Source: Candidatus Obscuribacterales bacterium (GTDB lineage Bacteria > Cyanobacteriota > Vampirovibrionia > Obscuribacterales > Obscuribacteraceae). Taken from it: a DNA stretch of 64,000 nt. The DNA lies in assembly GCA_020050685.1 (NCBI GenBank), contig JAGVKG010000016.1, positions 124,001-188,000 on the forward strand, given 5' to 3'. The translations under genes and the position numbers were made by a program. The notes below the pieces were generated by a model. It ran no database searches. It was not told the DNA's origin and was given only the letters and a program-made list of their open reading frames with translations. Shown here piece by piece: positions 49,146 through 64,000 of this stretch (positions are counted from its first letter, which is position 1; each line of letters begins with the position of its first letter).

Positions 49146-50489
49146 ATGTATAATCACAAGCAAACATTTTTATCTCTTGTTTCTGTTTTTACTCTCTTAC
49201 TAACAGCTTCCACACCAACATTTTGTCAATCCAATCAAGGCTCACGCTCCAATTTACCGAGACAACATCGAACAGCAGCACCACCATGTGAAGATGATGT
49301 TCTATTATTGATGCCTGCCACAGACAGTGATGAAGACGACATTAAAGACTCTTTGAAAAATATCAAAGGCGAAATTATTGAAGTCATTGGCACAGGGCCA
49401 ATGACTGTCTACAAAGTGAGAGTTGCAAAAGGAACACTGAAAGAAGCAGAAACAAAGATATCAAAAGACAAAACCTTCCAAACCATGCAACGCAATTGGA
49501 AAGCCGCTCCACAAACAGATCGCAGAATACAAATTGCCGCGCGCACAAGGCGTCCCGGAAGCTTCACTCCCAACGATCCATACTTTCCACAGCAGTGGCA
49601 CCTAACACATATCGGTGCTGCACAAGCATGGAACATGAGTTTTGGTAGCAATGCTATTACAATCGGCATTATGGATACCGGAGTAAATTATTGGATCAAC
49701 GAGCTAAAAGGGAAATGCGCAGTCGGTTATGATGCATTCAACGATAAAGACGGTCAGTCTGATATTTATCTTGATCCTGGCTGGTACGTAGGGCATGGTA
49801 CACAAAGCGCTACAACCATGGCCGCCATCACCGATAACGCTATCAACGGAGCTGGCATTGCGCCACTGGCCAAGATATACCCAATTCGCATTTGTGGTGA
49901 CTCACACGGCTACGGTTCAGACGATGCAATCATCAAAGGTCTAATTCGCTGTCATGATCTTCGTATAAAAGTCGCCGCAGTTAACTATGCCTGGGATTAC
50001 CCTTGGTCTTTTGCTGGCACGAAAGCGCACCCGGCTCTAGATAAGTATTTCAAATGGTTTCACGACCAATGTGGTGGAATAGTCGTAAACTCAGCCGGTA
50101 ACCACGGTGTGTACGACCAGAGTACGCGCCTACCTTATTTAATCGTTGTTTCCGCCACCGACCAAAACGATGACATGATTGATTTTACCGGTTGGTGGAA
50201 ATCCAATCACGGTAATCCAATTTGGTTTGGCGCACCCGGCGATCAAGTCTGGTGCTCCGGAACGGAATGTGAACCATGGAGTTATGGGGGTACGTCATCA
50301 GCTTGTCCGATTACAGCAGCAGTTGTCGCGCTTGTTTGGGGTGCGCAGCCGGCGTTAAAGAACACGCAAGTAGAAAGAATATTGATGGACACAGCTACAA
50401 AAGGCAAAGATGGTGCATATTGGAATCCCTCCACAGGATTTGGCATTCCTAATGCAGCGGCTGCAATCAAGAAAATATTAGGGAGATAG
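49146..50489 (+). CDS. Secreted subtilisin-family (S8) serine protease
   Basis: This 447-residue protein has an N-terminal signal peptide (probable cut near TFC/QS, about residue 28). A region of about 80 residues resembles a subtilase propeptide ('DDVLLLMPA...VYKVRV'). The catalytic domain begins at 'NDPYFPQQWHL..IGA..AW'. The triad is visible: Asp177 in 'IGIMDTGVN', His217 in 'GHGTQSATT' and Ser384 in 'GGTSSACP', with oxyanion Asn319 in 'NSAGNHG'. It should cleave peptide bonds outside the cytoplasm. No C-terminal domain or anchor follows the catalytic core. It lies 97 nt after the giant gene G2 on the same strand, so processing or turnover of G1/G2 is a reasonable inference, but the substrate is not shown. 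It converges with the cysteine-peptidase-like gene. Confidence 0.93.
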   Translation: MYNHKQTFLSLVSVFTLLLTASTPTFCQSNQGSRSNLPRQHRTAAPPCEDDVLLLMPATDSDEDDIKDSLKNIKGEIIEVIGTGPMTVYKVRVAKGTLKEAETKISKDKTFQTMQRNWKAAPQTDRRIQIAARTRRPGSFTPNDPYFPQQWHLTHIGAAQAWNMSFGSNAITIGIMDTGVNYWINELKGKCAVGYDAFNDKDGQSDIYLDPGWYVGHGTQSATTMAAITDNAINGAGIAPLAKIYPIRICGDSHGYGSDDAIIKGLIRCHDLRIKVAAVNYAWDYPWSFAGTKAHPALDKYFKWFHDQCGGIVVNSAGNHGVYDQSTRLPYLIVVSATDQNDDMIDFTGWWKSNHGNPIWFGAPGDQVWCSGTECEPWSYGGTSSACPITAAVVALVWGAQPALKNTQVERILMDTATKGKDGAYWNPSTGFGIPNAAAAIKKILGR

Positions 50490-50515: not shown

Positions 50516-51946
50516 CTATTGGGGTTTGCGGCGCTGCATGGTATTGAATAGATCGGCAATGGTCATTTCGCGATCCTTCTTTGCTCCCCATTGATTATCG
50601 ACTTTGACTTTGGCAGTTTTGGCATCATAACCCGTGACATTGACGACATGCCAACCGGCTTGCTGACTATCTGACAAAAATGGCTCATTGCCTGTGTATA
50701 CAAGTATGGTCATTGGCAAATTGCCTTTGTCCATGGCCTTTGCCACGGTGTTCTCCAATTTATCGGCCGAATCCACGTAATTGGTATAGTCTTTCCACTT
50801 TGGGTGTTGAGCCTGAACACACCAAGAATGATCATCCACTTTGTCGCCGAGAATATCATTGCCTATAAATGGCAGGGCTCTTAAATCAGCAAATTGTCCT
50901 GGATCGCTACGAATTGGTGTTTTGTCCCCAGGGTGCCATGGATGCAGCTCCTCGTCCATGACAGCAATTGGATTCAAATGCATATCATATATTCGCTCGC
51001 CCCCGTCCGCAGGCTTCTGACCGGCTACAGGTTCCTGTTGTTGATATTGAAATTCTGGTGCTAGTCTTTTCATGCTCAGATTTACAGCAGTAACCTGAAA
51101 GATTTGGCTGGCATGGTTTCTTTGCCCATAGGCTGTGACTTCGCGAGCAGCCTCATCGTGAGGAATCAAACTGCCTGGATTTGCAGACACGACAATACCG
51201 CTATGACTTTTATATTCACCTGTAGTTGCCATGTCTACAACCAGTCTGGCTGCTTGCGAAGGACGTTTGACATAGGCTCGCACTTCCGCGGCAGCCGAGA
51301 CATTACAGGTATTATGATAGCCCTGGTCAATAGCAGTTGGCTTGGCAGCATGATCCAAAATTTGAGAAGCAAGCTTGGTACGCTGTCTTTCGTCATCATG
51401 TCTTTCCGATTCAGTCGGATGTCCCAACTGACTTATATAGACTAAAGGAACCTGTGGATTGTATTCCACTTGCAATAACTTGGTAATTTGTTTGTAAGTG
51501 TCACCAACTTCCTTGTACGCTTCCGATAAGGCGCGTTCCCTTTTCCACTCGGGATGCTGTTTTCGATACAATTGTTCAAGCTCATCTACTCTTTTTTCAA
51601 AGAGAGCCTCATTTTTCTTAAATTGAGCAAATTCGTCTCTGCCCATTTTTTTCTCTGCCAATTCATTTAAATTGGCACGAGTTTTAGTAATTGCCGAGTC
51701 CTCAATTTTGACGGCTTGATTGAACCCCAGTCCAACTCTTTTATCGCCAGACTTTTCGCTCGATCTGAGCAATTTGCTCATCTCCGGACTGCCCCAAGTT
51801 GAACTATTTAATCTCTCTGACGTTTGCTTGGTATTCTCAGCAGATTGGAATTTATCCCGACTAGCAACACCGTCGGAATTTTTGCTTGGCTTAGCGTTTG
51901 CAGCTTTTTCTGTCATGCGTGCACCAGGCTGACGTTTACCTAACAA
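50516..51946 (-). CDS. Papain-fold (clan CA-like) cysteine peptidase-like protein
   Basis: The 476-residue frame begins with TTG at 51946; an ATG at 51916 would give 466 residues, and neither has a strong ribosome binding site. There is no signal peptide. Residues 1-90 are polar and probably disordered, and 95-165 look helical or coiled-coil. A candidate papain-type active site follows: Gln208 and Cys214 in 'DQGYHNTCNVSAA', with the same 6-residue spacing as papain Gln19/Cys25, then His433 in 'GWHVVNVTGYD' and Asn451 in 'VDNQWG'. The 'WHVVNVTGYD..T..V.VDNQWG' ending is typical of C39/papain-like folds. I infer a protease or related acyltransferase. Substrate and location are unknown. The gene for the 86-residue protein lies just upstream on the same strand. 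Confidence 0.7.
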   Translation of the reverse strand: MLGKRQPGARMTEKAANAKPSKNSDGVASRDKFQSAENTKQTSERLNSSTWGSPEMSKLLRSSEKSGDKRVGLGFNQAVKIEDSAITKTRANLNELAEKKMGRDEFAQFKKNEALFEKRVDELEQLYRKQHPEWKRERALSEAYKEVGDTYKQITKLLQVEYNPQVPLVYISQLGHPTESERHDDERQRTKLASQILDHAAKPTAIDQGYHNTCNVSAAAEVRAYVKRPSQAARLVVDMATTGEYKSHSGIVVSANPGSLIPHDEAAREVTAYGQRNHASQIFQVTAVNLSMKRLAPEFQYQQQEPVAGQKPADGGERIYDMHLNPIAVMDEELHPWHPGDKTPIRSDPGQFADLRALPFIGNDILGDKVDDHSWCVQAQHPKWKDYTNYVDSADKLENTVAKAMDKGNLPMTILVYTGNEPFLSDSQQAGWHVVNVTGYDAKTAKVKVDNQWGAKKDREMTIADLFNTMQRRKPQ

Positions 51947-52020
51947 AAATATACCCAGAAATTCTCAAGCCATGTTCGCATATCGCAACTGACAGCAGAA
52001 TCCTATATTATTTGACCTGG

Positions 52021-52281
52021 CTAGTCGGTATAAAATTCACTGACGGCAGCAAGGGCATCGGTAAGAACTTTATCTTGTTCTTCCGGCGTCTTACATTCGG
52101 CCAATCGTTTATCGATGTGCGCTTCATACTGCTCTTGTTGCTTTAAAACAAGCAGCATTTTTGCCATTTGATAATGCGGATGATCCTGCGGATACTCGGC
52201 GATGATCTGGCAGAGATCTTCATTGGTGAAGAAGTCTCCGGCATCCAGATTGTCTAATTCATTTGAGTCCGGGAAATCCAT
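52021..52281 (-). CDS. Small acidic helical protein, unrecognised
   Basis: An 86-residue protein with an acidic N-terminus (many Asp/Glu in the first 20 residues) and predicted amphipathic helices ('QMAKMLLVLKQQEQYEAHIDKRLAEC', 'EEQDKVLTDALAAVSEFY'). The ATG at 52281 has a weak GGAA 5 nt upstream. It is cytoplasmic, without membrane segments. It lies upstream of the cysteine-peptidase-like gene on the same strand (74 nt to that gene's TTG, 104 nt to its ATG), so the two may be co-transcribed. A regulator or chaperone of that protein is conceivable but unsupported. Codon structure and length look genuine, yet no family is recognised. Confidence 0.6.
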   Translation of the reverse strand: MDFPDSNELDNLDAGDFFTNEDLCQIIAEYPQDHPHYQMAKMLLVLKQQEQYEAHIDKRLAECKTPEEQDKVLTDALAAVSEFYTD

Positions 52282-52432
52282 AGCGGTTCCAAATTGTCCG
52301 AGTTTCCAAAGTGTGATGTTCTAAATTAACCACGAATTCCGATAATTATCCGTCATTTTTCACTTAATATTGTTAAATAATGTGATTTAAAACAGCCCCA
52401 ACTTGGTTGGTAATAACTGGGAATGGAGAGCC
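52282..52432. promoter_or_regulatory. Divergent AT-rich intergenic region
   Basis: This 151-nt gap separates the minus-strand 86-aa gene from the plus-strand TPR gene and must hold promoters for both. The stretch 52340-52392 is strongly AT-rich (TTAATATTGTTAAATAATG), but I cannot pick a convincing -35/-10 pair. GGAG at 52425-52428 is the ribosome binding site of the TPR gene. Confidence 0.35.
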
Positions 52433-53608
52433 GTGAGCCTAAAAGTAATTACATTTCTAATCTTGATTATCGCGCTTTCCACCGAGGCGGTATTTTTGCC
52501 TGCGGAAGCTGCCCAGTCTGAGACGGCGAAAGCCTGGAAAGAGCTTCAACGGCGCGGCACAGAGACTTTTAATGCCGGCGAATATTGGATCGCTGAGCCT
52601 AAATTACTCGAGGCTCTGGAAAAGGCACGCACATTTGGTCCAGATGATATTCGCTTGTCCCAAACCCTCGGCGAGCTTGGACGCTACTACACAGTGCGTG
52701 GCAAGTTTGATATAGCTGAGCCATATTTGGAAGAATCACTTTTCGTCAAAGAAAGAGCGCTCGGCACATATCACGATTCCATGATTCCGGCGATTGCCTC
52801 ACTGGCAAAGTTCTACCTCAATTTCAGCTCAAAGGCTAAAGCCGATCCATTTGCAGAAGAAATATTGGCGCGCATCGATGGCAAAATGAAAGAGCCAAGC
52901 ATGCATGCACGCACGAAAACAAGATTGCAAAAAGGTGGTGTACTAGAAGGATGGGCCGGCTCGGCGGCCATGGAAGCACGCGATCCCCTGCTCGAATGGG
53001 CAATTGCCTGCGACGAGCTGGGCAATATCTATTGCACTCAAGGTGATTTGAAGATGGCTAACAAGCTCTTCGGAGCAGCCTTGGATGTGAAAGCAACAGT
53101 CTTTGGCAAATTCCACCTTTCACTAGCAAACAGCTATGAGAATCTTGGACGTGTGGCCATGCTCCAAGATGACCCCAAGGATGCGGAAACCTACTTTGTT
53201 GATTCACTGAACATAACAGAACAGATTTTGTACCCCGAAAGTCACGAAGTGTACATGCGCATCGACAGATTGGCAAAATGCTACATCAAACAAGGTAAGT
53301 TCGGCAAAGCCGAGCAGCTCTATTTGCGCGCCCAGAGCCTGTGGGACAAAGAGCCATCTAAATACGGTGATGAACAGCGTGCAGCATTTGCGTTAGGTTG
53401 TATGTATGCGGATGCCAGAAACTTTGGAGCAGCCATGCCTTACTTACGCAAGGCTCTACATATGGCCGTCCAATACAATGGACCAGAATCAATCAATCTC
53501 GTTCCGTTCTTGAGAAAAATTGCCTATGTCAATTACTACATAGGTCATAGAGATCAAACTGATTCGCTGCGCGCCAAATCCGATATCATTTCTGGCATCA
53601 TAAAATAG
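52433..53608 (+). CDS. Exported tetratricopeptide (TPR) repeat protein
   Basis: I place the start at the GTG at 52433. It has GGAG 4 nt upstream and gives a clean signal peptide (SLKVITFLILIIALS..., cut near AEAA/QS). A longer in-frame TTG at 52403 would put charged residues ahead of the signal. The mature protein is about 365 residues of paired helices with TPR features: 'LGELGRYYTVRGKFDIAEPYLEES', 'DELGNIYCTQGDLKMANKLFGAAL', 'YENLGRVAMLQDDPKDAETYFVDSL', 'LAKCYIKQGKFGKAEQLYLRA' and 'LGCMYADARNFGAAMPYLRKAL'. The pattern is of the TPR_12/kinesin-light-chain type. TPR proteins scaffold protein-protein contacts, and this one would act outside the cytoplasmic membrane. It converges on aceA with only 5 nt between stops. 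The partner is unknown; the giant exported proteins nearby are a guess. Confidence 0.85.
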   Translation: MSLKVITFLILIIALSTEAVFLPAEAAQSETAKAWKELQRRGTETFNAGEYWIAEPKLLEALEKARTFGPDDIRLSQTLGELGRYYTVRGKFDIAEPYLEESLFVKERALGTYHDSMIPAIASLAKFYLNFSSKAKADPFAEEILARIDGKMKEPSMHARTKTRLQKGGVLEGWAGSAAMEARDPLLEWAIACDELGNIYCTQGDLKMANKLFGAALDVKATVFGKFHLSLANSYENLGRVAMLQDDPKDAETYFVDSLNITEQILYPESHEVYMRIDRLAKCYIKQGKFGKAEQLYLRAQSLWDKEPSKYGDEQRAAFALGCMYADARNFGAAMPYLRKALHMAVQYNGPESINLVPFLRKIAYVNYYIGHRDQTDSLRAKSDIISGIIK

Positions 53609-53613
53609 TTATT

Positions 53614-54990
53614 TCATCGTTTGGTTTGGATTTTATCGGTTTTGCCGACTTTGTTTGGCGAACCGTTACCGTTGCCGTTGTTGAACTGTTCTTCTTCAGT
53701 TGATCCAGCTAAAGCCGTGGTAGATGATTTACCTGAGCTGATTGCTGTCAGCACTTTGTCAAAATATCCCGTGCCAACTTCTTGTTGATGACGGGCAGCA
53801 GTATAACCATTAACTTCTTCAGCAAACTCTTCTTCTTGCACACGCACATAAGCAGGCATGCCTTCGCGCGCATAGTCACGGGCAAGTTTGAAGGCATTGA
53901 GATTTATGGAATGCCATCCGGCCAGAGTAATGAATTGATACTTGAAGCCGAGCTTTCCGAGGTCTTGATTGAATTTGGCAATTTCCGCATCATTCAAATG
54001 TTTTTTCCAGTTGAATGAGGGGGAGCAATTGTAAGCAAGCAATTTGCCAGGAAATTGTGCATGCACAGCTTGAGCAAATTGTTTGGCTTCCTCAAGATCT
54101 GGCTTTGACGTTTCAAACCAGAGCATATCGGCATAAGGAGCATAGGCAAGCGCACGAGCAATTACAGGTTTGAGTCCAGACTGAACTTGGAAGTATCCCT
54201 CAATTGTGCGTTCACCGACAATAAAGGCTCTGTCAATCGGATCAATGTCGGAAGTCAGAAGTGTTGCAGCCAGCGCATCGGTTCTAGCAACAATGATTGT
54301 TGGCACACCAAGGACATCAGCAGCAAGACGAGCTCCAATGAGGGTGCGAATGAATTGCGAGGTTGGCACCAAGACTTTGCCACCAAGATGTCCACATTTT
54401 TTCTCTGCCGCCAATTGATCTTCAAAATGCACGGCTGCAGCTCCTGCTTCGATCATTGATTTCATCAATTCGAATGCATGCACAGGTCCACCAAAACCGG
54501 CTTCCGCATCAGCAAGGATTGGTGCATACCAGTCAATATTTTGCTTCGCGTCTATATCACTACTCTTCGATCCATTTCCATCAAAGCGAGAGATTTGATC
54601 GGCGCGCGTCAAGGCATTGTTCAATCTTTTCACGAGATTGGGAACACTGTTGGATGGATACAAACTTTGATCGGGATAAGTCTGACCAGAAAGATTTGCA
54701 TCGGCCGCCACCTGCCAGCCACTGAGATAAATAGACTTCAAGCCTGCTTTTACCATTTGCACTGCTTGCGATCCATTCAAAGCACCAAATGCAGTGACAT
54801 ATGGTTCTTTGTTGATCAATTCCCATAATCGGTTTGCACCGTGTTGTGCAATCGTATGCTCCACTTTCAACGAAGGTCTGAGACCGACAACTTCTTCTGC
54901 ACTATATGGTCTCTGAATTCCTTTCCATCTAGACTCAGTTGCCCACTTCTTGTTCAGTTCATCGACTTGCTCGTTGACACCTGGCTTCAT
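53614..54990 (-). CDS. aceA: Isocitrate lyase
   Basis: Isocitrate lyase splits isocitrate to succinate and glyoxylate, the first step of the glyoxylate shunt, in the cytoplasm. The 458-residue protein shows the family signature 'KKCGH' at 197-201 with catalytic Cys199, '[10 protein letters not shown]' at 90-99, the metal-binding 'DAEAGFGG' at 161-168 and '[13 protein letters not shown]'. The start ATG at 54990 has GAGG 8 nt upstream and lies 15 nt after the malate synthase stop, so the pair is an operon in the order aceB-aceA. The family normally ends at the 'STEEEQF' equivalent. Here a tail of about 22 residues rich in Asn, Gly and Lys follows, which is unusual because the C-terminus helps close the active site. 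Confidence 0.97.
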
Positions 54991-55005
54991 TATTGCTACC
55001 TCGTT

Positions 55006-56592
55006 TTACTTGTTATTCAAAAATTCATACGCTCGTATAGTGAGAAACTCTGTGAAACTATCCTTCAAAATCAATTCATCCAAAATTGCTGCCGCATCGT
55101 CAAATCGTCCTGGCTTATCGCTCTGCAATTTTTTCATTTCATCTTGGCAGATTTTCTTGTACAACTCTTTGGTGATCACTGTCCCGGATTCTGTCTTACA
55201 GCCTTGATGAATCCACTGCCAAATTTGTGCACGAGCAATTTCTGCCGTTGCCGCGTCTTCCATTAGGTTATAGATTGCCGCAGCGCCAATTCCGCGCAAC
55301 CAAGATTCAATATATTGCAATGCCACATCAACATTGTGTGTGACACCGGTTTCCGTTACCTTGCCACCAGCAATATTCATATTGAGTAGATCGGCGGCAC
55401 TTACTTTCACATCTTGGCGCAGCTTTTCTTTCTGGTTTGGTTTGGAGCCTAATACTAGATCGAATTCTTCTTTGGCAATTGGCACCAGATCCGGGTGAGC
55501 AACCCAGGTGCCATCAAAACCATCGGAGGCTTCCCGCGCCTTATCTTCTTTCACTTTAGCAATTGCCACTTCGTTGACTTTGGCATCTTTACGGCTAGGA
55601 ATGAAGGCAGCCATTCCGCCCATCGCATGCGCCCCGCGCCTATGGCAAGTCTGCACCATTAGTTGACAATACGCTCTCATAAAGGGCACTGCCATCGTTA
55701 CCTGTGATCGATCCGGGAAAATGAAATTCTTATTGCTGTGAAACTTCTTGATGATACTGAAGATGTAATCCCATCTTCCTGCATTCAATCCAGATGAATG
55801 TGCGCGAAGTTCATACAAAATTTCTTGCATTTCAAAAGCAGCCAAAATCGTTTCAATTAAAACCGTTGCCCTAATAGTGCCGCGGGCAATACCTAATTTG
55901 TCCTGCGCATAATTGAACACATCGTTCCAGAGTCTGGCCTCAAGGTGACTTTCCATCTTCGGTAAATAAAAATATGGACCAGATTTACGCTTGAGCAATT
56001 CATGAGCATTATGGAAAAAGTAAATGCCAAAATCAAACAAACTGGCTGAAATCGGCTCATCGGAAACCAGCACATGCTTTTCGTTTAGGTGCCAACCTCT
56101 GGGTCGTAAAACCAGGGTGGCGATATTCTCATTCAATTTGTAAGACTTGCCTTCAGGACTGACAAAATCCAAGTTTCGCCGAACTGCATCGATGAGGTTG
56201 ATTTGACCTTCGACAACATTTTCCCAAGTCGGCGACAAAGAATCTTCCATGTCGGCCATGAATACTTGGGCACCGGAGTTAAAAGCGTTGATCATCATTT
56301 TGCGATCACAAGGACCTGTGATCTCCACACGGCGATCATTTAAATCTGCCGGTGCTAGTGCAACCTGCCAAGCAGACTTTCGCACTTCAGAAGTCTCTGT
56401 CAAAAAATCGGGCAATACCCCTTGATCAAGTTTTACTTGCCGCTCCACTCTTGCCTTAAGGAGACTCTTTCGCTCCTGATTGAACTTAATATGCAGGCCA
56501 GCAATAAAATCCAATGCCTCCGGTGTCAAAACAGCAGCATAATGCGAAGGCAGCGCACCAACTACCTCCACTTGTCGCAACGCGCTTGTCAT
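55006..56592 (-). CDS. aceB: Malate synthase A
   Basis: Malate synthase condenses glyoxylate with acetyl-CoA to malate, completing the glyoxylate shunt. The frame is open back to an ATG at 56643, but the ATG at 56592 has GGAGA 5 nt upstream and gives 528 residues, close to the usual length of the A form (about 530). Visible motifs include 'LRPRGWH' with the catalytic Arg, '[15 protein letters not shown]' (the family signature, though Ala precedes the His where the pattern expects Asp/Glu/Asn/Gln), and '[21 protein letters not shown]' with the catalytic-base Asp. It is followed after 15 nt by aceA. The 260-nt region upstream holds a perfect inverted repeat that may be its operator. Confidence 0.96.
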
Positions 56593-56851
56593 ATTTCTCT
56601 CCGCCTTTAGTAGAGACACGGCAATTCTAATTGCATTGTACATAGATAGAAATGCCCATTGTTGTATTACATATAGTGCTTAGCCGTAAACACCCACGCA
56701 AGAACAAATAGCAATCTTAAAAGTCCTTTACAATACTTTTAAGCCTTGACTCAACGGAACCAGTCATACGCGTTGGCAAATCACACTTACCTTCATACAA
56801 GCAAGTGGAGTGTACTGTCATACGACCATTATTATTTACTGTCAGTCATTT
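56593..56851 (-). promoter_or_regulatory. aceBA upstream region with a 9-bp perfect inverted repeat
   Basis: This 259-nt non-coding gap precedes aceB. CTTAAAAGT at 56716-56724 and ACTTTTAAG at 56735-56743 form a perfect 9-bp inverted repeat with a 10-nt spacer, about 124 nt upstream of the aceB ATG. No T-run follows in the minus direction, so it does not look like an intrinsic terminator for the upstream small gene; an operator is more likely. No clear -10/-35 pair is evident. Confidence 0.45.
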
Positions 56852-57298
56852 CTAAAACTCAGGAGCAATGGCCGGTTCACTCTGCATCAAAACAAGCAGC
56901 GGTATCTTATCTGTGTTGTTGTCTACTTCGCTGAGACGCTGGCTCTCCTCGCGCCTCTTACTTTCGACTGATTCTTCATAATTAGCAATTACTTGATGGG
57001 GAGATTCATCACCCTTAAACCAAAAGGCACGTCCAATCATTTCCATGGCTCGCTGCCGATTCAGCCGACCCTCATTTTTTAAGATCATCCAAATATGCTC
57101 CATGCCCTCTGACGAACCGAAAGACATGCGCACATTTTTCCGCAGGCGCATTTTTTGCAGACGCTGCATAAGCATTCCATGAGTGGGAATTACTTCTTCC
57201 AATATGGCTGATGCCACGATGGTTCTATCAAAGGTGTTTTGGAACATTGAAAGCGTATTCTCCAATCTATCTTTGATAAGTGACTGGTGTATATTCAT
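56852..57298 (-). CDS. Small helical protein of unknown function downstream of G3
   Basis: The frame encodes up to 158 residues from a TTG at 57328. I show the ATG at 57298 (148 residues). An ATG at 57247, after the G3 stop, has GGAG 12 nt upstream and is also possible. The protein is rich in Arg, Met and Glu and probably all helical: 'FDRTIVASAILEEVIPTHGMLMQRLQKMRLRK', 'EGMEHIWMILKNEGRLNRQRAMEMIGRAFWF'. There is no signal peptide or membrane segment. It overlaps the 3' end of G3 out of frame in the chosen form, suggesting translational coupling. Its highly charged composition is the opposite of G3's, so it is a separate gene and not a shifted piece of it. No family recognised. Confidence 0.5.
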   Translation of the reverse strand: MNIHQSLIKDRLENTLSMFQNTFDRTIVASAILEEVIPTHGMLMQRLQKMRLRKNVRMSFGSSEGMEHIWMILKNEGRLNRQRAMEMIGRAFWFKGDESPHQVIANYEESVESKRREESQRLSEVDNNTDKIPLLVLMQSEPAIAPEF

Positions 57299-60200
57299 CC
57301 GATTGATCGAGATCGCCATCATCAGCAAAATCTTGCGTGTCCACTACTACTTCTAAGGCAGACACTTCTGCATTATTGAATCTAGCCGAGATTTTTTCAT
57401 AGGATTCGACCGAAAATTCTCCACCATCAAGTCTGAGATAGGAAGGTCCGATGGAAGTAAATATCATGGTTCCGCCGTTCAAGTTCAGATTGGCAGCAGC
57501 AGCGCCTGCGGTATGCGGAACAATCGTTGTTAGTGCATTTACGTTAGAACTACCCCAAGAGGTACTCAAATTAACTTCCGCACCAGTACCGGATAGGATT
57601 TGCAGAACCAAGCCGGATGTAATGCCAAAGCTGCTTGTGTTATTGATGATTGTATTACTACCAAGTGGCTCTGAATCACTGCTCGGCTGTAAAAACAAAG
57701 GATAGCCTGGCACCGTGCCGGGAGCAAATGGCGGTGGTGCAAGGGTAATAAACGAACCTGTTTGCCCAGCACCAACTTCAATTATGCCGCCGATTGAATT
57801 GGTGGACATGGTACCAACTGCGTTAGATATTAAGTTCGGAAATGATCCTGTAACGTTTCCTTTGGCAAACATTTGCACACCGCCGCCATTGGCTTCAAAG
57901 TAACCTTCCAGAACCATGTTTCCACTTTGGGCCACCATTTGCAGAATGCCACCGGCAGTTTGCATTGACGTTGCGCCGCTGGTAGTGATACCACCTTTGG
58001 TGCTAACTACCCGAATACTGCCGCGGCTGCCTATATCGATTGGTCGCAATATCCCACCAGCATAGCTGTCTGCTAATGTGCCCGCCTCTAAAGTAGTATC
58101 CGCAAGTGATATCGCATTGGTTGCTTGCAGAAGAATTTGTCCTGACTGAAGGCTTACTGTCGTACCGCTAAAAGCAATTGAGTTAGCAGTAAATTGCAGT
58201 AAACCGGCTGGATTGGTCAGGAATATGTTGGCATTGTCACCGGCCAGCACACCACTGCCAGAAGAGAGTATGCAACTGCCGCAGCTAAGCGAATCCGTGA
58301 CAGTCAGCCCACCAATGCTGGTTGCGGTCACCATTCCCAGGCTCTCGCCCGAGATACTCAGTGCGCCGGCGGGTTGATAGAAAATCATGCTGGTAAGCTG
58401 GGCATTGAAATTGAGAGCCCCAACAATATTACCGCTAGTCTGCTTGATGATAATACTGGAATTCGTGCTTGTTGTGCCGCCGCCGGAACCAGCATTGATG
58501 GTAAGCGAATTACCAACTATAGTCTTGCCGCTAATTATGCTTGGTGTGAACTTACCAAAATTAGTTCCGCCAATTTGCATGGCAATATTCGTGGCACTGA
58601 CACTGCCACCATTACCGATTGTGATACTGCCACTTGAGTCAAAAATGATATTGCCTTGAGGGGCTAAAACAGCACCCCGTAAGTCCACAGTACCAGGAAC
58701 AAACGTGTTAGTGGCTCCGACATTGGCCCAACCAGTACTCATGATCAATGTGCCACCAGTGCCGGCGGAGACAGTACTACTTTTCACCTTGATACTTCCA
58801 CCCACACTGATATTCATATTGTTATCGCTGGTAAGTGATCCGCTTACATCCAGCATATGATTTTTCGATGTCGTCAAAGAATTGACAAATAATTGTGCTT
58901 GCGAAATTGCCGGGCTTATAGGATTGCTGACAAACTGCACATTACCTTTAATGTTAGCAACGGCATTGGCGAGAATATTTACTCCAACCGGATTGCTCGT
59001 GCCAAAGTTTTGCAACACAAGCGTATTAGTAGTTGGAATATAAAATGCACTCATGTTACTGACAAAAACTGTCGGGGAAATGGTAATTGTATTGCCCGCA
59101 ACAGTTACACCGGCGGTTGGTATGTTGGTGGAAAGCGATGTCAGTTGAGCAAGCGGTGAGTTTGGACCAGTGACACTGAGATCAAGACTGGCAATACTTT
59201 GGACAGTGCCATTGGATTGGACAATCGTTCCGGCACCGAGATTTATTGTGCCAGTACCCCCTGCTGTTTGATTGAAGACAACAGCCGATTGATAGGGCGA
59301 ACCATTTATATTGACGTTAACTTGAGCATTAGGTGAGCCGGGAGCCGTCACCAGCCCGGAAGCACCAAAGTACGCTTGCGATGTTCCCTGGAAGGTATAT
59401 GTAACGTTGCCGGGAGTTGTTCCCGGTGTCGGCGTTGTCGGAATTGAGCAACAACCAGAAAGAATTGCTACGCCTGTGAGGTATGGCGTCGGTACTTGTG
59501 CGGGTAGTCCCTGATAACCCCAAACCCGACCATAACCTGTAATCGATATGTAATTGGCAATATTGATATTGCCATTGGCATTATCGTTTTCAATAATTAC
59601 CGGACCACCGTTGGCAGCGATATTGCCATTTATATTGATAGCACCACCCGTGCCATTGCTGTAAAGCGTGGCACCACCAAAGAGCGACTCAACTACAGTC
59701 GAGCCGCCACCGACTGTGAAACTGCCAGATGTAGTGAATTGAAAATCAGAAGCAGTTGAAGCGCCACTTAAGGTGACGAAAGCTTGGACATTGGGAACAG
59801 CGTTTATGTTAGCCGTGCCAGCGTTATGCGTCTTCACAATCAAATTATCGGCTGCGACAAATATTTGCACATCATTATTTGCTGCCGGTGTAGTTGGACC
59901 AATCACACCAGCGGCAATCATACCTATGTTGCCATTTTGGCTGGAAAGTCTTACTGTGGCCCCCGTAATCAGATTGGCGGCGAGAGTTTGCACAATGCTT
60001 CCGGCTGCCAAAATGTTGACGGCAGTACTTGTAGAAGTACCAACCGGCCCAGCCAAGGTAATGCTGTAACTGTCATAGCCATTTGTTGTCTCAGTAATTA
60101 AACTAATGTTGTTGGCGCTAATGGCAGTCGTTGATGTGGCTGTCGTGATCGAGCCCAAATTGTTGGTAAAAGTGAGATTCTCAACGTCAGTTAAGCCATT

Positions 60201-63200
60201 CAAATTCAACAAGACATTGCCAGTATTGGCAACTGAAATTGCCGTTGTACTACCATCTCCAGTAACAACCATAGTGAGGGAACCTGTGGATGTGTTGACA
60301 TCAACGATACCCCCTTCTCCGGCAGTCAAACTTACCACTGTGACACCGGCCAGTAAACCAGAACCACCGCTCTCGTTTGTAGTGTTAATTGCACCGGAGG
60401 CTTGCAGTGTCAGACTACCGCTGGCAAGTACATTTGAATTTACAGTCAGATCAGAGGACTGAGCAATCATTGTAATTGCTCCGGTTGACACAACAGTACC
60501 ATCGACAATGATTGAAGCAGCTTGAATATTTACATTACCAGTCGAGGCGCTCGTAGAAGTCTGCGTCAATCCCAATATTGTCAGATCGGCCGAATTGGCA
60601 ATTCCAAGCACTCCACCTCCGGCAGTAATCGTTAGGTTATTAACCATGGTGGCGAGCACACCGATGTTGCCTTTGCCAATGTTCAGAGTTAAGTTGTTAG
60701 CAGTAATCTCCCCCGGTGCAACCTGAGAAATTGGTGCGGACTTTGCCACGCTCAAACTTATACTTTCTGTTCCCATGCTACCAAGTCCGACCGAGGCAAT
60801 TTGTATGCCACTGCCAGCGGATAAAATGATGTTACCGCCAACGCTTGTACCATCTACATCAATTGCCAAAAATCCTTGAGTTGGCGCGTTGGCATAACCG
60901 ACAGGCATTGGACTTCCGGTCGTGTTTGACAGAGTCACGGATACAATGCCGCCCACATCTCCAGTTGCCGAAAGAGCCAGTGGTGCTTGTTGGCTCAGAC
61001 TAATCGTCGCCGCGTTGATAGCTATGGTGCCGCCAACGCCGCCGGCAGCTGCATTAGCGCTAAGCGTACCCGTATTGCTTAAACCAAATTTGCCAGCTGG
61101 CGCTTCCAGATCTATGTTGCCACCATTGCCAGTCGAGGCGGTCACCAAAATATTGTTCGGATTGAATAGGGTAATTCCGCCTGTACCAAGATTCTTTACG
61201 CCAATGGAACCGCCACTTGTACCAGTAGCAGAAAGTGTACCAGCCACACCGTTGCAGTTTGTTGTACAAGGATTGGTAGCGTTGCCTAAGCTGAATACAA
61301 CAGTGTTTGTATTAACGATAATTTCAATTATGCCACCAGGTCCGCCCGGATTGTTGCCAGATGCAGTGCCACCATTAACGCTCAAGTTGCCACCGATATA
61401 GACTTTTCCGCCCTGTCCAGGTCCACCATTTCCTGTAGCATCAAGCGAAATCTGACCACCGGCACCGCCACCAACAAAAGTGTTGGCATTTCCCGGGTTT
61501 ACCTGCACGTTACTTGGATTGGTAAGTGTAATGCCACCGGAGCCCCCGTTTACAACAAAAACGTTTCCACCATTAGCACCACCTCCGGCATTAGCGGTAA
61601 GCGCTCCGTTTTGCACACCATTAGTGGTGGCATTGCCAATGGCAAATGGCACATTGCTGCCGGAAACAATCGAGATACTGCCACCATCACCGCCGGCAGA
61701 ATAGGCTGTGACTATCGGATTTGAACTAAATAAGGTGAACAAGACATTGACTTCAATCTGGTTAGCGCTTGTCGAATGTACTTGCTCAATTTCAACTATA
61801 TTGGCTTGCGGCGCTCCGCCGTTTACACTTCCGGGGCCAGAAAGGTATACATACGAATTAACTGCATATTGAGTGCCCGTTCCGGCAGGCAGGCTGATTT
61901 GCACCGGCGGCACAACCGGAGGAAACGGCAGCATTGTCGGAGTAGGAATGGAAGTAGCTGTTTCTTGCACAGCATTGACAAAATTATCTGCACCACCACT
62001 GGCATCCATATTTCCTTTAATTAAAACCGGACCACCAGGAGCCTGCAAGGAAATTGATCCGCCAGGGCCACCCGTTACTAGAGATTGTTGTCCAGCATTA
62101 GGATTGGCGGGCTGAGCCGTAATGGATATTGCCGGGCTTGTGCTGTTATCCACAAGTATGCCACTCTTGTTAACATTGATTATGGTAATTTGACCGCCGT
62201 TCCAACCATTGGCCTTGAGCATGGGGCTACCGCTTATCGGGCTTATCGATAATTGTGAGGAATTATTGCCGTAAAGGAAAATCGATCCGGCAACACCTTG
62301 CGTAAATGTATTACCTATATCGTTCGCGTCGATGCCACCACTGGCGTTTAGCGCCACATTAATAATCAGAGGTCCGTTAACCGCCTGTAAAGAAATCATC
62401 CCACCATTGCCCGGTTGGGCAACCGCACCGGAATTAACACCTTGATCCGGGGTGTTTACTGTCAGAACGGCTGGACCAGCACTAACCCCGACTTGAATGC
62501 CACCGGCACCCAAATTGACTACGCTCACCGAACCACCATTGCCGTTAAGGGAATTCCCGGCACCACCATCAGCATTAATCGATACCGCCACACCATTGGG
62601 AGTGCCTGCGTTCAAAGTTGTACCAATTAAGAATGGCAAACTTGCGCCGGTATTGCAAATAATACTGACCATGCCACCATTGCCGGCAGCGGTCGGACCA
62701 AACTGACCGGCAGTACCCGCAACACTACCATTAACATTCAATGAGCCAAAAACACCAACCGGACCAAGATTAGACTGTAAAAAGATATTGCCACCATTGC
62801 CACCTGTGGTAACGATGCCAGCCGGAATCTGAGTTGTATCGGTCGGCTGCGCGGAAAGCATGCCGCTGTTTATCACTATACCGGCACTACCTTGGTTCCT
62901 TAGAGCAATAGTGCCGCCGGAAAATCCATTAACAGTAATCATGCCGTTAACACCATTGGTGGTGGCACCAGTCATCACTGAAAATGCAGACGTACTGCTA
63001 TTGGAAGTAATATCAATAGCGCCGGCATTACCAGATTGATAATAACCATTCACACTCGAGCCTATTTGCCATGGCGCAGGAACGTTGGCATTGAATGTAA
63101 CTTGATTGCTACCCGTATTAATTGATTGGACGATCGCAAGGGTTGAATTTGCCCCGTTGTCGAGCCAAGTTTTTTGACCGACGACATACTCGTTAGCATT

Positions 63201-64000
63201 AGGCGTTGCACCAGTTAGCTGAATTGTTGCACCACTAACAAATGTATAGGACTGAGTTGCAAGACTTGCAGCACCACCGCTTGCATCCAAAGGAGCATCG
63301 ACATAGACAGTGCCCATCGGCGCGTATAATCTAATGTAACCACCGTCTCCTCCTGGAACCGCCAGAAACGGATTGCCCGGAGCAGCTGCCACAGAAATTA
63401 GTGGTACCAAGTTAAGGTTGTTGAGACTATCGATTTGTATGCCACCGAGGTTATTGCTCAAAATAATTGCACCACCTGAGCCAAAATTGGTTTGCAGATA
63501 GACACCACCCCATTCAGTTGGATTTCCACTGCCAATGTTACCTTGAGCAGTCAGCGATCCTTGTATGCCGTTTGCCGGTAGGGTAGCCGCACCAACTTCA
63601 AAAACGCCCGCACTATAACTTGTGGCAATTTGAATTAAGCCACCATTGCCGCCAGGTTGATTCGCACCCCAGGCACCGCCGGACGCATCCAACCCTCCGG
63701 CACTAACTACGGTTCCATTAGCCTCTAAAACAATTTGTCCGCCATTGCCGCCCGCATAATTGGTACCACTTGTAAAATTGGTGGCATCGGCAGCTTGCAC
63801 TTCAATGCTGCCTGTAGCGTTGTTGGGATTTGATCCGGTACCATTTGCGCCGACGGAAATTCCACCGCCTAAATTGCGAACGATAACCGTGCCACCCTTA
63901 CCGAAAGCCTCTGTATCTCCTGATGAGGCAATATTGCCGTTTGCGCTAAGCAATCCACTATTGTCAACACCATTAGGACTGCCAGTAGAAGCCGCACCAA
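57267..64000 (-). CDS. G3: C-terminal part of a third giant repeat protein (5' end outside the window)
   Basis: The minus-strand frame is open from the right window edge to a TAG at 57267, giving about 2,244 residues without an N-terminus. From about 64000 down to 61100 it carries repeats related to those of G2, with elements such as 'ATTNGVNGMITVNG', 'NGGxISLQAxxGPVxIxGxLNASGG' and 'NxGSGGITLTNPSNI'. From about 61000 to 59700 there are FHA-like short strands ('NNLTITAGGGVLGIANSADLTI'). A QA[FY]FG module lies at 58799-59615. The last 25 residues are acidic with VVVDTQDFADDGD, matching the tails of G1 and G2. Cys occurs mainly as close pairs (CGSC, CC, CxxxC). It is probably exported and beta-helical; the signal peptide cannot be seen. 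Surface role inferred. Confidence 0.85.
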   Translation of the reverse strand, partial: GAASTGSPNGVDNSGLLSANGNIASSGDTEAFGKGGTVIVRNLGGGISVGANGTGSNPNNATGSIEVQAADATNFTSGTNYAGGNGGQIVLEANGTVVSAGGLDASGGAWGANQPGGNGGLIQIATSYSAGVFEVGAATLPANGIQGSLTAQGNIGSGNPTEWGGVYLQTNFGSGGAIILSNNLGGIQIDSLNNLNLVPLISVAAAPGNPFLAVPGGDGGYIRLYAPMGTVYVDAPLDASGGAASLATQSYTFVSGATIQLTGATPNANEYVVGQKTWLDNGANSTLAIVQSINTGSNQVTFNANVPAPWQIGSSVNGYYQSGNAGAIDITSNSSTSAFSVMTGATTNGVNGMITVNGFSGGTIALRNQGSAGIVINSGMLSAQPTDTTQIPAGIVTTGGNGGNIFLQSNLGPVGVFGSLNVNGSVAGTAGQFGPTAAGNGGMVSIICNTGASLPFLIGTTLNAGTPNGVAVSINADGGAGNSLNGNGGSVSVVNLGAGGIQVGVSAGPAVLTVNTPDQGVNSGAVAQPGNGGMISLQAVNGPLIINVALNASGGIDANDIGNTFTQGVAGSIFLYGNNSSQLSISPISGSPMLKANGWNGGQITIINVNKSGILVDNSTSPAISITAQPANPNAGQQSLVTGGPGGSISLQAPGGPVLIKGNMDASGGADNFVNAVQETATSIPTPTMLPFPPVVPPVQISLPAGTGTQYAVNSYVYLSGPGSVNGGAPQANIVEIEQVHSTSANQIEVNVLFTLFSSNPIVTAYSAGGDGGSISIVSGSNVPFAIGNATTNGVQNGALTANAGGGANGGNVFVVNGGSGGITLTNPSNVQVNPGNANTFVGGGAGGQISLDATGNGGPGQGGKVYIGGNLSVNGGTASGNNPGGPGGIIEIIVNTNTVVFSLGNATNPCTTNCNGVAGTLSATGTSGGSIGVKNLGTGGITLFNPNNILVTASTGNGGNIDLEAPAGKFGLSNTGTLSANAAAGGVGGTIAINAATISLSQQAPLALSATGDVGGIVSVTLSNTTGSPMPVGYANAPTQGFLAIDVDGTSVGGNIILSAGSGIQIASVGLGSMGTESISLSVAKSAPISQVAPGEITANNLTLNIGKGNIGVLATMVNNLTITAGGGVLGIANSADLTILGLTQTSTSASTGNVNIQAASIIVDGTVVSTGAITMIAQSSDLTVNSNVLASGSLTLQASGAINTTNESGGSGLLAGVTVVSLTAGEGGIVDVNTSTGSLTMVVTGDGSTTAISVANTGNVLLNLNGLTDVENLTFTNNLGSITTATSTTAISANNISLITETTNGYDSYSITLAGPVGTSTSTAVNILAAGSIVQTLAANLITGATVRLSSQNGNIGMIAAGVIGPTTPAANNDVQIFVAADNLIVKTHNAGTANINAVPNVQAFVTLSGASTASDFQFTTSGSFTVGGGSTVVESLFGGATLYSNGTGGAININGNIAANGGPVIIENDNANGNINIANYISITGYGRVWGYQGLPAQVPTPYLTGVAILSGCCSIPTTPTPGTTPGNVTYTFQGTSQAYFGASGLVTAPGSPNAQVNVNINGSPYQSAVVFNQTAGGTGTINLGAGTIVQSNGTVQSIASLDLSVTGPNSPLAQLTSLSTNIPTAGVTVAGNTITISPTVFVSNMSAFYIPTTNTLVLQNFGTSNPVGVNILANAVANIKGNVQFVSNPISPAISQAQLFVNSLTTSKNHMLDVSGSLTSDNNMNISVGGSIKVKSSTVSAGTGGTLIMSTGWANVGATNTFVPGTVDLRGAVLAPQGNIIFDSSGSITIGNGGSVSATNIAMQIGGTNFGKFTPSIISGKTIVGNSLTINAGSGGGTTSTNSSIIIKQTSGNIVGALNFNAQLTSMIFYQPAGALSISGESLGMVTATSIGGLTVTDSLSCGSCILSSGSGVLAGDNANIFLTNPAGLLQFTANSIAFSGTTVSLQSGQILLQATNAISLADTTLEAGTLADSYAGGILRPIDIGSRGSIRVVSTKGGITTSGATSMQTAGGILQMVAQSGNMVLEGYFEANGGGVQMFAKGNVTGSFPNLISNAVGTMSTNSIGGIIEVGAGQTGSFITLAPPPFAPGTVPGYPLFLQPSSDSEPLGSNTIINNTSSFGITSGLVLQILSGTGAEVNLSTSWGSSNVNALTTIVPHTAGAAAANLNLNGGTMIFTSIGPSYLRLDGGEFSVESYEKISARFNNAEVSALEVVVDTQDFADDGDLDQSDEYTPVTYQR
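58799..59615 (-). repeat. QA[FY]FG module, copy 4 (in G3)
   Basis: The element order matches the G2 copies: 'NGGPVIIENDNANGNINI', a Pro/Thr-rich turn, 'TSQAYFGASGLV' (about 59355-59390), 'AVVFNQTAGGTGTINLG', 'VQSIASLDLSV', 'FYIPTTNTLVLQNFG', 'NPVGVNILA' and 'SLTSDNNMNISVGG'. It is more diverged than the two full copies in G2 are from each other, and carries an extra CC pair ('LSGCCSIPT') in the loop before the signature. Confidence 0.55.
61100..64000 (-). repeat. Beta-helix-like coding repeats of G3
   Basis: About six units are visible, marked by 'NGV.G.L.ANG/ATG' followed by 'GG.I.V.N.G.GGI' (for example near 63540, 62935, 62580, 61610 and 61230 on the plus-strand scale). Spacing is less regular than in G2. 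Element sequences such as 'FxVGxATTNGVxGxL' are shared with G2 repeats, so the two arrays are related. The array continues beyond the window. Confidence 0.6.

What the first reader, a model, noticed from the sequence alone, without database searches (positions are those of the whole stretch)
50516..52281. Papain-like active site in an unrecognised protein, paired with a small acidic protein
Gln208-x5-Cys214 has the papain oxyanion/nucleophile spacing, and His433 and Asn451 follow in the expected order, but the 200-residue N-terminal region is unlike known propeptides and there is no signal peptide. The preceding 86-residue acidic helical protein could be an inhibitor, chaperone or immunity-like partner.
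Basis: partly seen in the sequence, partly recalled or inferred. Interest (0 to 1): 0.5.

Follow-up and report, generated by a model that had tools for sequence, protein, structure and literature searches.

The report
Unnamed papain-like protease without its partner
A gene from an uncultured non-photosynthetic relative of cyanobacteria appears to encode a papain-like protein-cutting enzyme of a large unnamed family; the small neighbouring protein guessed to be its partner was not found elsewhere, while many longer relatives carry a different, conserved partner gene just downstream.

Summary
The peptidase observation holds. Window 50516-51946 (-) encodes an intact 476-aa protein whose last ~290 residues look like a papain-like cysteine peptidase domain: Gln208, Cys214, His433 and Asn451 are kept in 52, 53, 52 and 51 of 53 aligned rows, in a C1-type frame (QGxxx(T/S)C ... 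HVV..(V/T)GY ... NQWG). No Pfam or NCBIfam model reaches its cut-off on it. A weak AF2 model has papain-fold enzymes among its best PDB hits, none significant. The family is in 53 of 53 genomes of the order searched (1-40 matches each) and, diverged, in 16 genomes outside the class.

The pairing idea fails. The 86-aa protein looks coding but had no match in 59 other genomes. A different conserved partner (about 170-260 aa) lies just downstream of 24 of 34 long-N-terminus members examined and 1 of 11 short ones; 49 of 53 genomes have it. The window's short copy lacks it, though 16 of 24 rows of its clade have it. Best reading: a stand-alone thiol peptidase derived from a modular effector/processing-protease family, its partner lost with the long N-terminus. 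Proteolysis, substrate, export and partner role are untested.

The parts
50516..51946 (-). 476-aa (466 aa from the ATG at 51916) papain-like cysteine peptidase, short stand-alone family member (P0001)
50525..51391 (-). conserved peptidase domain, residues ~186-474
   Evidence: 53-row alignment; A1, 52 rows
51323..51325 (-). Gln208, putative oxyanion-hole residue (52 of 53 rows)
   Evidence: codon read
51305..51307 (-). Cys214, putative nucleophile (53 of 53 rows)
   Evidence: codon read
50648..50650 (-). His433, putative catalytic His (52 of 53 rows)
   Evidence: aligned with the C1 His; codon read
50594..50596 (-). Asn451, putative third catalytic residue, in N-Q-W-G (51 of 53 rows, one Asp)
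   Evidence: aligned with NSWG of Peptidase_C1; codon read
51392..51916 (-). N-terminal region: charged linker, then a helical stretch (model residues 59-149) of which a related segment precedes the domain in relatives
   Evidence: strict segment pattern in 30 of 53 rows
52021..52281 (-). 86-aa acidic ORF upstream (P0002); coding-like, no relative found; not a conserved partner

Best explanation
P0001 is a short, stand-alone member of a papain-like (clan CA, C1-like) cysteine peptidase family found in every Obscuribacterales genome searched. Cys214 attacks the peptide bond, His433 and Asn451 activate it, Gln208 and the Cys amide form the oxyanion hole (inferred by analogy with papain; proteolysis is not shown). 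In many relatives the same domain ends, or is embedded in, long proteins, some with RHS, LysM, FHA and annexin parts, where I infer it serves as terminal effector peptidase or as processing protease that cuts the protein into working pieces. Many long forms carry a conserved downstream partner of about 170-260 aa, which I infer to be a chaperone or regulator acting with the long N-terminal part. P0001 probably descends from that partnered group, has lost the long N-terminus and the partner, and acts alone as a soluble peptidase with an unknown substrate; the helical stretch before the domain may hold it in check.
For: Catalytic residues kept in 51-53 of 53 rows; fuller motif in 47 of 53 family rows and 0 of 229 other genes. 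Pairwise hhalign to four Peptidase_C1 sequences: prob 84%, E 7e-6, His on His and NQWG on NSWG (the same with 10 rows); unrelated control A1-A2 prob 0.1%. Foldseek: 13 of the top 16 PDB rows are papain-fold enzymes (fold class recalled), though only three proteins: GtgE, Alr0975, AvrRpt2. Family in 53 of 53 genomes of the order. Five of nine long or medium members scanned have LysM, RHS_repeat, FHA or Annexin over the cut-off; internal domains in giant ORFs L060 and L061. Partner next downstream, same strand, gap under 150 nt, for 23 of 45 family ORFs, and its HMM, built on those 23, matched seven further loci. Of the best-150 lists, 50 of 150 peptidase matches have a listed partner within 2.5 kb downstream; 4 of 150 partners have a peptidase on their other side, 0 lie opposite within 4 kb. 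Partner in 24 of 34 long against 1 of 11 short forms. P0001 lies in a 24-row set (SH-aLRT 97) with 16 partnered, 7 unpartnered, 1 unknown.
Against: No activity shown; papain folds also do other chemistry. The AF2 model is weak (pLDDT 60.9, pTM 0.60, three sequences) and the stretch with Gln208 and Cys214 is under 50. No Foldseek hit passes E 0.001. Papain-fold VIA rows have Z 5.5-6.2, within stated background, below many helical designs; the best row over the peptidase part, AziU2-U3 (Z 8.1), is one whose fold class I do not know. The profile match covers the His/Asn half only. Four of nine members scanned have no known module. Ten of 34 long forms lack a detected partner. The 200-aa cut-off was chosen after seeing the data, and on phylogenetically independent pairs the link is not significant (8 pairs: same way in about 2.5, never opposite, median p 0.25). 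Loss in P0001 rests on a midpoint-rooted quick tree and a sister branch with support 80. No injection machine found.
Confidence: 0.55

Rival explanations
1. P0001 and the 86-aa P0002 form a toxin-immunity (or protease-inhibitor) pair, P0002 being an orphan, fast-evolving or recently acquired inhibitor that replaced the lost family partner.
For: Same strand, P0002 ends 74 nt before the P0001 TTG; codon use coding-like (0 of 54 shadow ORFs as high); P0001 has no family partner in the window.
Against: No match in 59 other genomes; no Pfam, NCBIfam or PHROGs family beyond chance-level hits; 10 of 11 short family members lack a partner of the conserved kind, so none seems needed.
Confidence: 0.12
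2. The conserved downstream partner of the long forms is an immunity protein that blocks the peptidase, and the family is an interbacterial toxin set working like Cpe1/Cpi1.
For: Downstream, same-strand position; distances of partner and peptidase domain correlate over 20 pairs (r 0.66, 0 of 5000 permutations as high); RHS, annexin, LysM modules in some members; Cpe1/Cpi1 precedent (PMC12136450, passages).
Against: Peptidases with intact motifs but no partner are common (20 of 45); the partner goes with the long N-terminus; a linked chaperone would correlate equally; the partner is one conserved family; no contractile sheath in 0 of 40 genomes.
Confidence: 0.25
3. P0001 is a papain-fold enzyme that is not a protease (transglutaminase, transpeptidase or amidase).
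For: Phytochelatin synthase Alr0975 and pseudomurein endoisopeptidase PeiR are among the structural rows; clan CA folds vary in chemistry (recalled).
Against: Gln six residues before Cys and the NxWG motif follow the protease pattern; the profile match is to Peptidase_C1.
Confidence: 0.15
4. P0001 is a decaying remnant of a longer effector gene and does nothing.
For: Short form inside a mostly partnered clade, on a long end branch (1.49).
Against: Frame intact over 476 codons, coding-like codon use (0.26 against a shadow maximum of 0.19), catalytic residues kept.
Confidence: 0.12

Closest known systems
Peptidase family C1 (papain; Pfam PF00112)
   Same: Gln-x5-Cys spacing, QGxxxSC, H(A/V)V...GY, N-x-W-G; pairwise profile match on the His/Asn half
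   Different: 1 of 52 members touches PF00112 at E up to 1 (0.072); Asn in 45 of 53 rows right after the Cys where papain has Trp (recalled); long variable insert between Cys and His; no classic propeptide recognised
Peptidase_C39_2 (PF13529)
   Same: the only Pfam model to touch several members (9 of 52, best 1.8e-4); His-half similarity
   Different: below the curated cut-off (20.5 against 24 bits for P0001); pairwise hhalign prob 24%
Tox-PL1 and other papain-like domains of polymorphic toxins (PMC3482391, passages and section 12)
   Same: found both at protein ends and internally in repeat-rich modular proteins, read there as toxin or releasing peptidase
   Different: signature there NC-H-DxQ; no papain-fold toxin model among the Pfam hits; no known secretion marker found here
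Cpe1/Cpi1 protease toxin and immunity pair (PMC12136450, passages)
   Same: papain-like domain with a downstream small partner gene
   Different: the partner here is one conserved family tied to long N-termini; no T6SS or CDI context shown

Membership tests
Clan CA papain-like cysteine peptidases | Cys, His and Asn/Asp in order with a Gln before Cys, conserved | tested here: met
   Q, C, H, N in 52, 53, 52, 51 of 53 rows
Clan CA papain-like cysteine peptidases | papain fold with the residues juxtaposed | tested here: inconclusive
   weak model, Gln/Cys stretch under pLDDT 50; papain-fold rows on top but none at E 0.001; VIA Z 5.5-6.2; distances not available
Clan CA papain-like cysteine peptidases | thiol-dependent proteolysis | not testable with these tools
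   needs purified protein
Peptidase_C1 (PF00112) | match over the curated cut-off | tested here: not met
   P0001 not matched; 1 of 52 members at 0.072; hence called C1-like only
Peptidase_C39_2 (PF13529) | match over the curated cut-off | tested here: not met
   20.5 against 24 bits; 22.5 for the domain alone
Polymorphic toxin system | modular N-terminal delivery/repeat region with C-terminal enzymatic domain | tested here: inconclusive
   5 of 9 relatives scanned have RHS_repeat, LysM, FHA or Annexin over the cut-off; P0001 itself has none
Polymorphic toxin system | adjacent immunity gene | tested here: inconclusive
   long forms: conserved downstream partner of unknown role; P0001: no such partner in the window, P0002 without relatives
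Polymorphic toxin system | known delivery system in the genome | tested here: inconclusive
   contractile sheath PF04984 in 0 of 40 genomes, 27 of them of the order; VirB4-type PF03135 in 1 of 40, not the window's; other systems not tested

The most novel reading that the evidence does not exclude
Obscuribacterales hold a lineage-wide arsenal of annexin/LysM/RHS/FHA giant proteins that carry one or more built-in papain-like proteases to cut themselves into separate working pieces after delivery, many with a dedicated downstream chaperone, an independent counterpart of autoprocessing multi-effector proteins; P0001 is a protease freed from such a giant.
Probability: 0.25. Interest if true: 0.75.

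Novelty: new variant of a known kind. Interest (0 to 1): 0.5.

Why it matters
It is a protease family with up to 40 matches per genome that Pfam does not call (52 domains scanned) and NCBIfam does not call for P0001, in an order of bacteria whose way of life is little known (recalled). It brings a second unnamed family, the downstream partner. Together they give a testable handle on how these non-photosynthetic relatives of cyanobacteria may process giant proteins or act on neighbours, and would explain large unannotated genes.

Tried and rejected
P0002 as conserved partner: rejected, no match in 59 other genomes. Viral or plasmid origin: two of eight allowed viral-contig scans gave no confirmed relative, plasmids no match, PHROGs no match for P0001. 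PDB by sequence: nothing significant for P0001, for the domain profile (designed proteins at 0.03-0.35, cathepsin S 1.1, xylellain 1.7) or for the partner (none). Partner fold: AF2 from one sequence gave pLDDT 38, unusable; Pfam Lpp-LpqN at 0.035 for one of five partners is not evidence. A shared N-terminal FGKP stretch looked like a targeting signal but was seen in few members and not in P0001. Promoter scan: 5 sites against 4.0 expected; terminator-like 6 against 1.9, none pursued. Contractile or VirB4-type delivery: not supported. Families not listed by VIA are not thereby excluded.

Rows dropped or overlapping: L044 was left out of A1 (52 of 53 rows kept). In one search L035 was left out (same place as L043), and two of the 25 close downstream neighbours were not counted as partners (L068, second half of a broken member; L075, a 420-aa unrelated-looking protein). 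L047/L048 and L057/L070 are near-duplicates and L062/L075 are close, so counts are not fully independent. L058 has a partner-family match 2.1 kb downstream, counted as unpartnered. In one search, 10 of 55 rows were set aside (cut ends or under 900 nt of room). L020's N-terminus may be cut by a frame break. Gene calls came from my own codon score, trained on these loci. Matches of the partner HMM to the 23 rows it was built from are so by construction.

Full report
What is there. The window lies in contig C34 of a 4.2-Mb assembly. The two named relatives found by scan, L035 and L036, are titled Candidatus Obscuribacterales and Candidatus Melainabacteria; L035 has the contig length of G020:C12, a genome of the window's family, so the source is very likely an Obscuribacterales bacterium. 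On the minus strand, a 476-codon frame (50516-51946, TTG start, ATG at residue 11) follows an 86-codon frame (52021-52281) after 74 nt. The flanking genes run on the other strand: a subtilase (49146-50489; Peptidase_S8 4e-30) and a TPR protein (52403-53608).

Is the active site real. As a bare pattern it is weak: 25 of 229 non-family genes of 250 aa or more contain Qx5C followed by H and N at similar spacing. Conservation decides it. In a 53-row alignment of the domain, Gln208 is kept in 52 rows, Cys214 in 53, His433 in 52 and Asn451 in 51; Pro229 and Arg276 in 53, Trp453 in 51. A fuller motif is in 47 of 53 rows and 0 of 229 other genes. The stretches IDQGYHNTC, WHVVNVTGYD and DNQWG have the form seen in the Peptidase_C1 sequences (YNQGNLGSC, GHAVVLVGYD, RNSWG). 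Pairwise hhalign to those four sequences gives probability 84% and E 7e-6 over 74 columns, His on His and NQWG on NSWG; this E-value is for one comparison, and the Cys half is not in the aligned part. A control with the unrelated partner alignment gives 0.1%, and Peptidase_C39_2 gives 24%. No Pfam or NCBIfam model reaches its cut-off on P0001; Peptidase_C39_2 touches 9 of 52 members.

Structure. AF2 with three sequences (window, L035, L036) gave mean pLDDT 60.9 and pTM 0.60; the stretch holding Gln208 and Cys214 is under 50. Foldseek found no PDB match at E 0.001; 13 of its top 16 rows are papain-fold enzymes, three proteins in all: GtgE, phytochelatin synthase Alr0975 and AvrRpt2 (fold class recalled except AvrRpt2, titled a C70 protease). 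VIA-align puts helical proteins and designs first, then AziU2-U3 over model residues 202-466 (Z 8.1; I do not know its fold class), and further down Alr0975 (6.2), a C39-like domain (6.0), streptopain (6.0), PeiR (5.9), calpain (5.7), xylellain (5.6) and GtgE (5.5), all within the background it warns of. So the fold is supported, not proven, and juxtaposition of the residues could not be measured.

Distribution. A profile of the domain matches 53 of 53 genomes of the order, 1 to 40 matches each, 4 in the window's genome. In a draw of 386 genomes of the phylum 17 match: the window's own and 16 outside its class. In the nine outside loci I read, the proteins have a Gln...(Thr/Ser)-Cys motif (L083 with one residue more, L084 and L085 without the Gly), and some a recognisable His region; no partner match lies in those short stretches. 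Of 60 nearest genomes searched with P0001 alone 36 match, all among the 39 of the order; the 21 others of the class do not.

Architecture. Of nine relatives scanned with Pfam, five have LysM, RHS_repeat, FHA or Annexin over the cut-off and four have none (four Annexin stretches, 8e-28, in L065). One has a PRTase-CE match below the cut-off after the peptidase (L058). In frames open over the whole 19-kb stretches fetched the domain is internal, twice in L060 and once in L061. Zhang et al. (PMC3482391; passages and section 12 read) describe papain-like domains at terminal and internal places as toxins or releasing peptidases, and annexin domains in PVC-delivered toxins. That reading is borrowed here by analogy: a contractile sheath family was found in 0 of 40 genomes, 27 of them of the order (3 of 14 control genomes positive), and a VirB4-type family in 1 of 40 (1 of 14 controls positive).

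The partner question. P0002 codon use is coding-like (0.36 per codon against a shadow-ORF maximum of 0.19; 0 of 54 as high), but of 60 genomes only its own matches. Of 45 family ORFs with a called downstream neighbour, 31 neighbours are on the same strand, 25 within 150 nt, and 23 of these look like one new family (24-row alignment A2). An HMM of those 23 matched seven further loci, and the A2 profile matches 49 of 53 genomes of the order. Both genome lists show only their best 150 matches: 50 of 150 peptidases have a listed partner within 2.5 kb downstream, 4 of 150 partners have a listed peptidase on their other side, and none lies opposite within 4 kb. The 50 is a lower bound. Peptidase and partner distances correlate over 20 pairs (r 0.66, 0 of 5000 permutations as high), which tight linkage alone could give.

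Where the window's copy stands. Among 45 complete rows with room downstream, 24 of 34 with more than 200 aa before the domain have a partner, against 1 of 11 with fewer (Fisher 0.0009, cut-off chosen afterwards). On a quick tree of 53 domains P0001 falls in a 24-row set (SH-aLRT 97) with 16 partnered, 7 unpartnered (itself included) and 1 unknown, and next to partnered L006 (support 80). The trait link is not significant on independent pairs. The window has no partner-family match at E 1 and the genome's only one is beside the C52 paralogue. So P0001 probably lost long N-terminus and partner, together or in turn. If the partner were a needed antidote to the peptidase, active partnerless copies would be hard to keep; this leans me to a chaperone or regulator of the long N-terminus, which is an inference.

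Literature. Seven searches of the open library listed no paper that I could recognise as being on this family. I saw listings and abstract starts, except passages of PMC3482391 (and its section 12), PMC12136450, PMC10318531 (two reference-list passages only) and PMC12419801. Subscription journals and preprints are not in that library, so this is not proof that nothing is in print.

Verdict. The catalytic claim is confirmed at sequence level, the pair claim is not supported, and the more interesting object is the family with its downstream partner. Shown: conservation, distribution, architecture of sampled relatives, neighbourhood. Inferred: proteolysis, processing or effector role, partner function, loss in P0001.

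Noticed in passing
window 5585-49048 (+): A single open frame of 14,487 codons, repeat-rich (Gly/Ser/Asn/Thr), with a hydrophobic N-terminus that looks by eye like a signal peptide: a giant surface-type protein.
   Followed up: no
window 57267-63953 (-): A 2,228-codon frame of similar repeat-rich character on the other strand.
   Followed up: no
window 53614-56643 (-): Two adjacent frames that look like isocitrate lyase and malate synthase (glyoxylate shunt); named by eye, not tested.
   Followed up: no
L065, L066, L069 (downstream of the giant genes): Giant peptidase gene followed by the 175-183-aa partner and then further same-strand genes (in L069 a TPR protein): a possible conserved operon.
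   Followed up: partly
L060 (G020:C42:1000-20000) and L061 (G016:C5:8000-27000): Frames longer than the 19-kb stretches fetched (genome search gave 7,394 and 11,971 codons) with internal papain-like domains; L060 also has an HELLH-type stretch.
   Followed up: partly
L068:6335-7804: A family member split over two frames (one TAA inside), a likely pseudogene or assembly error.
   Followed up: no
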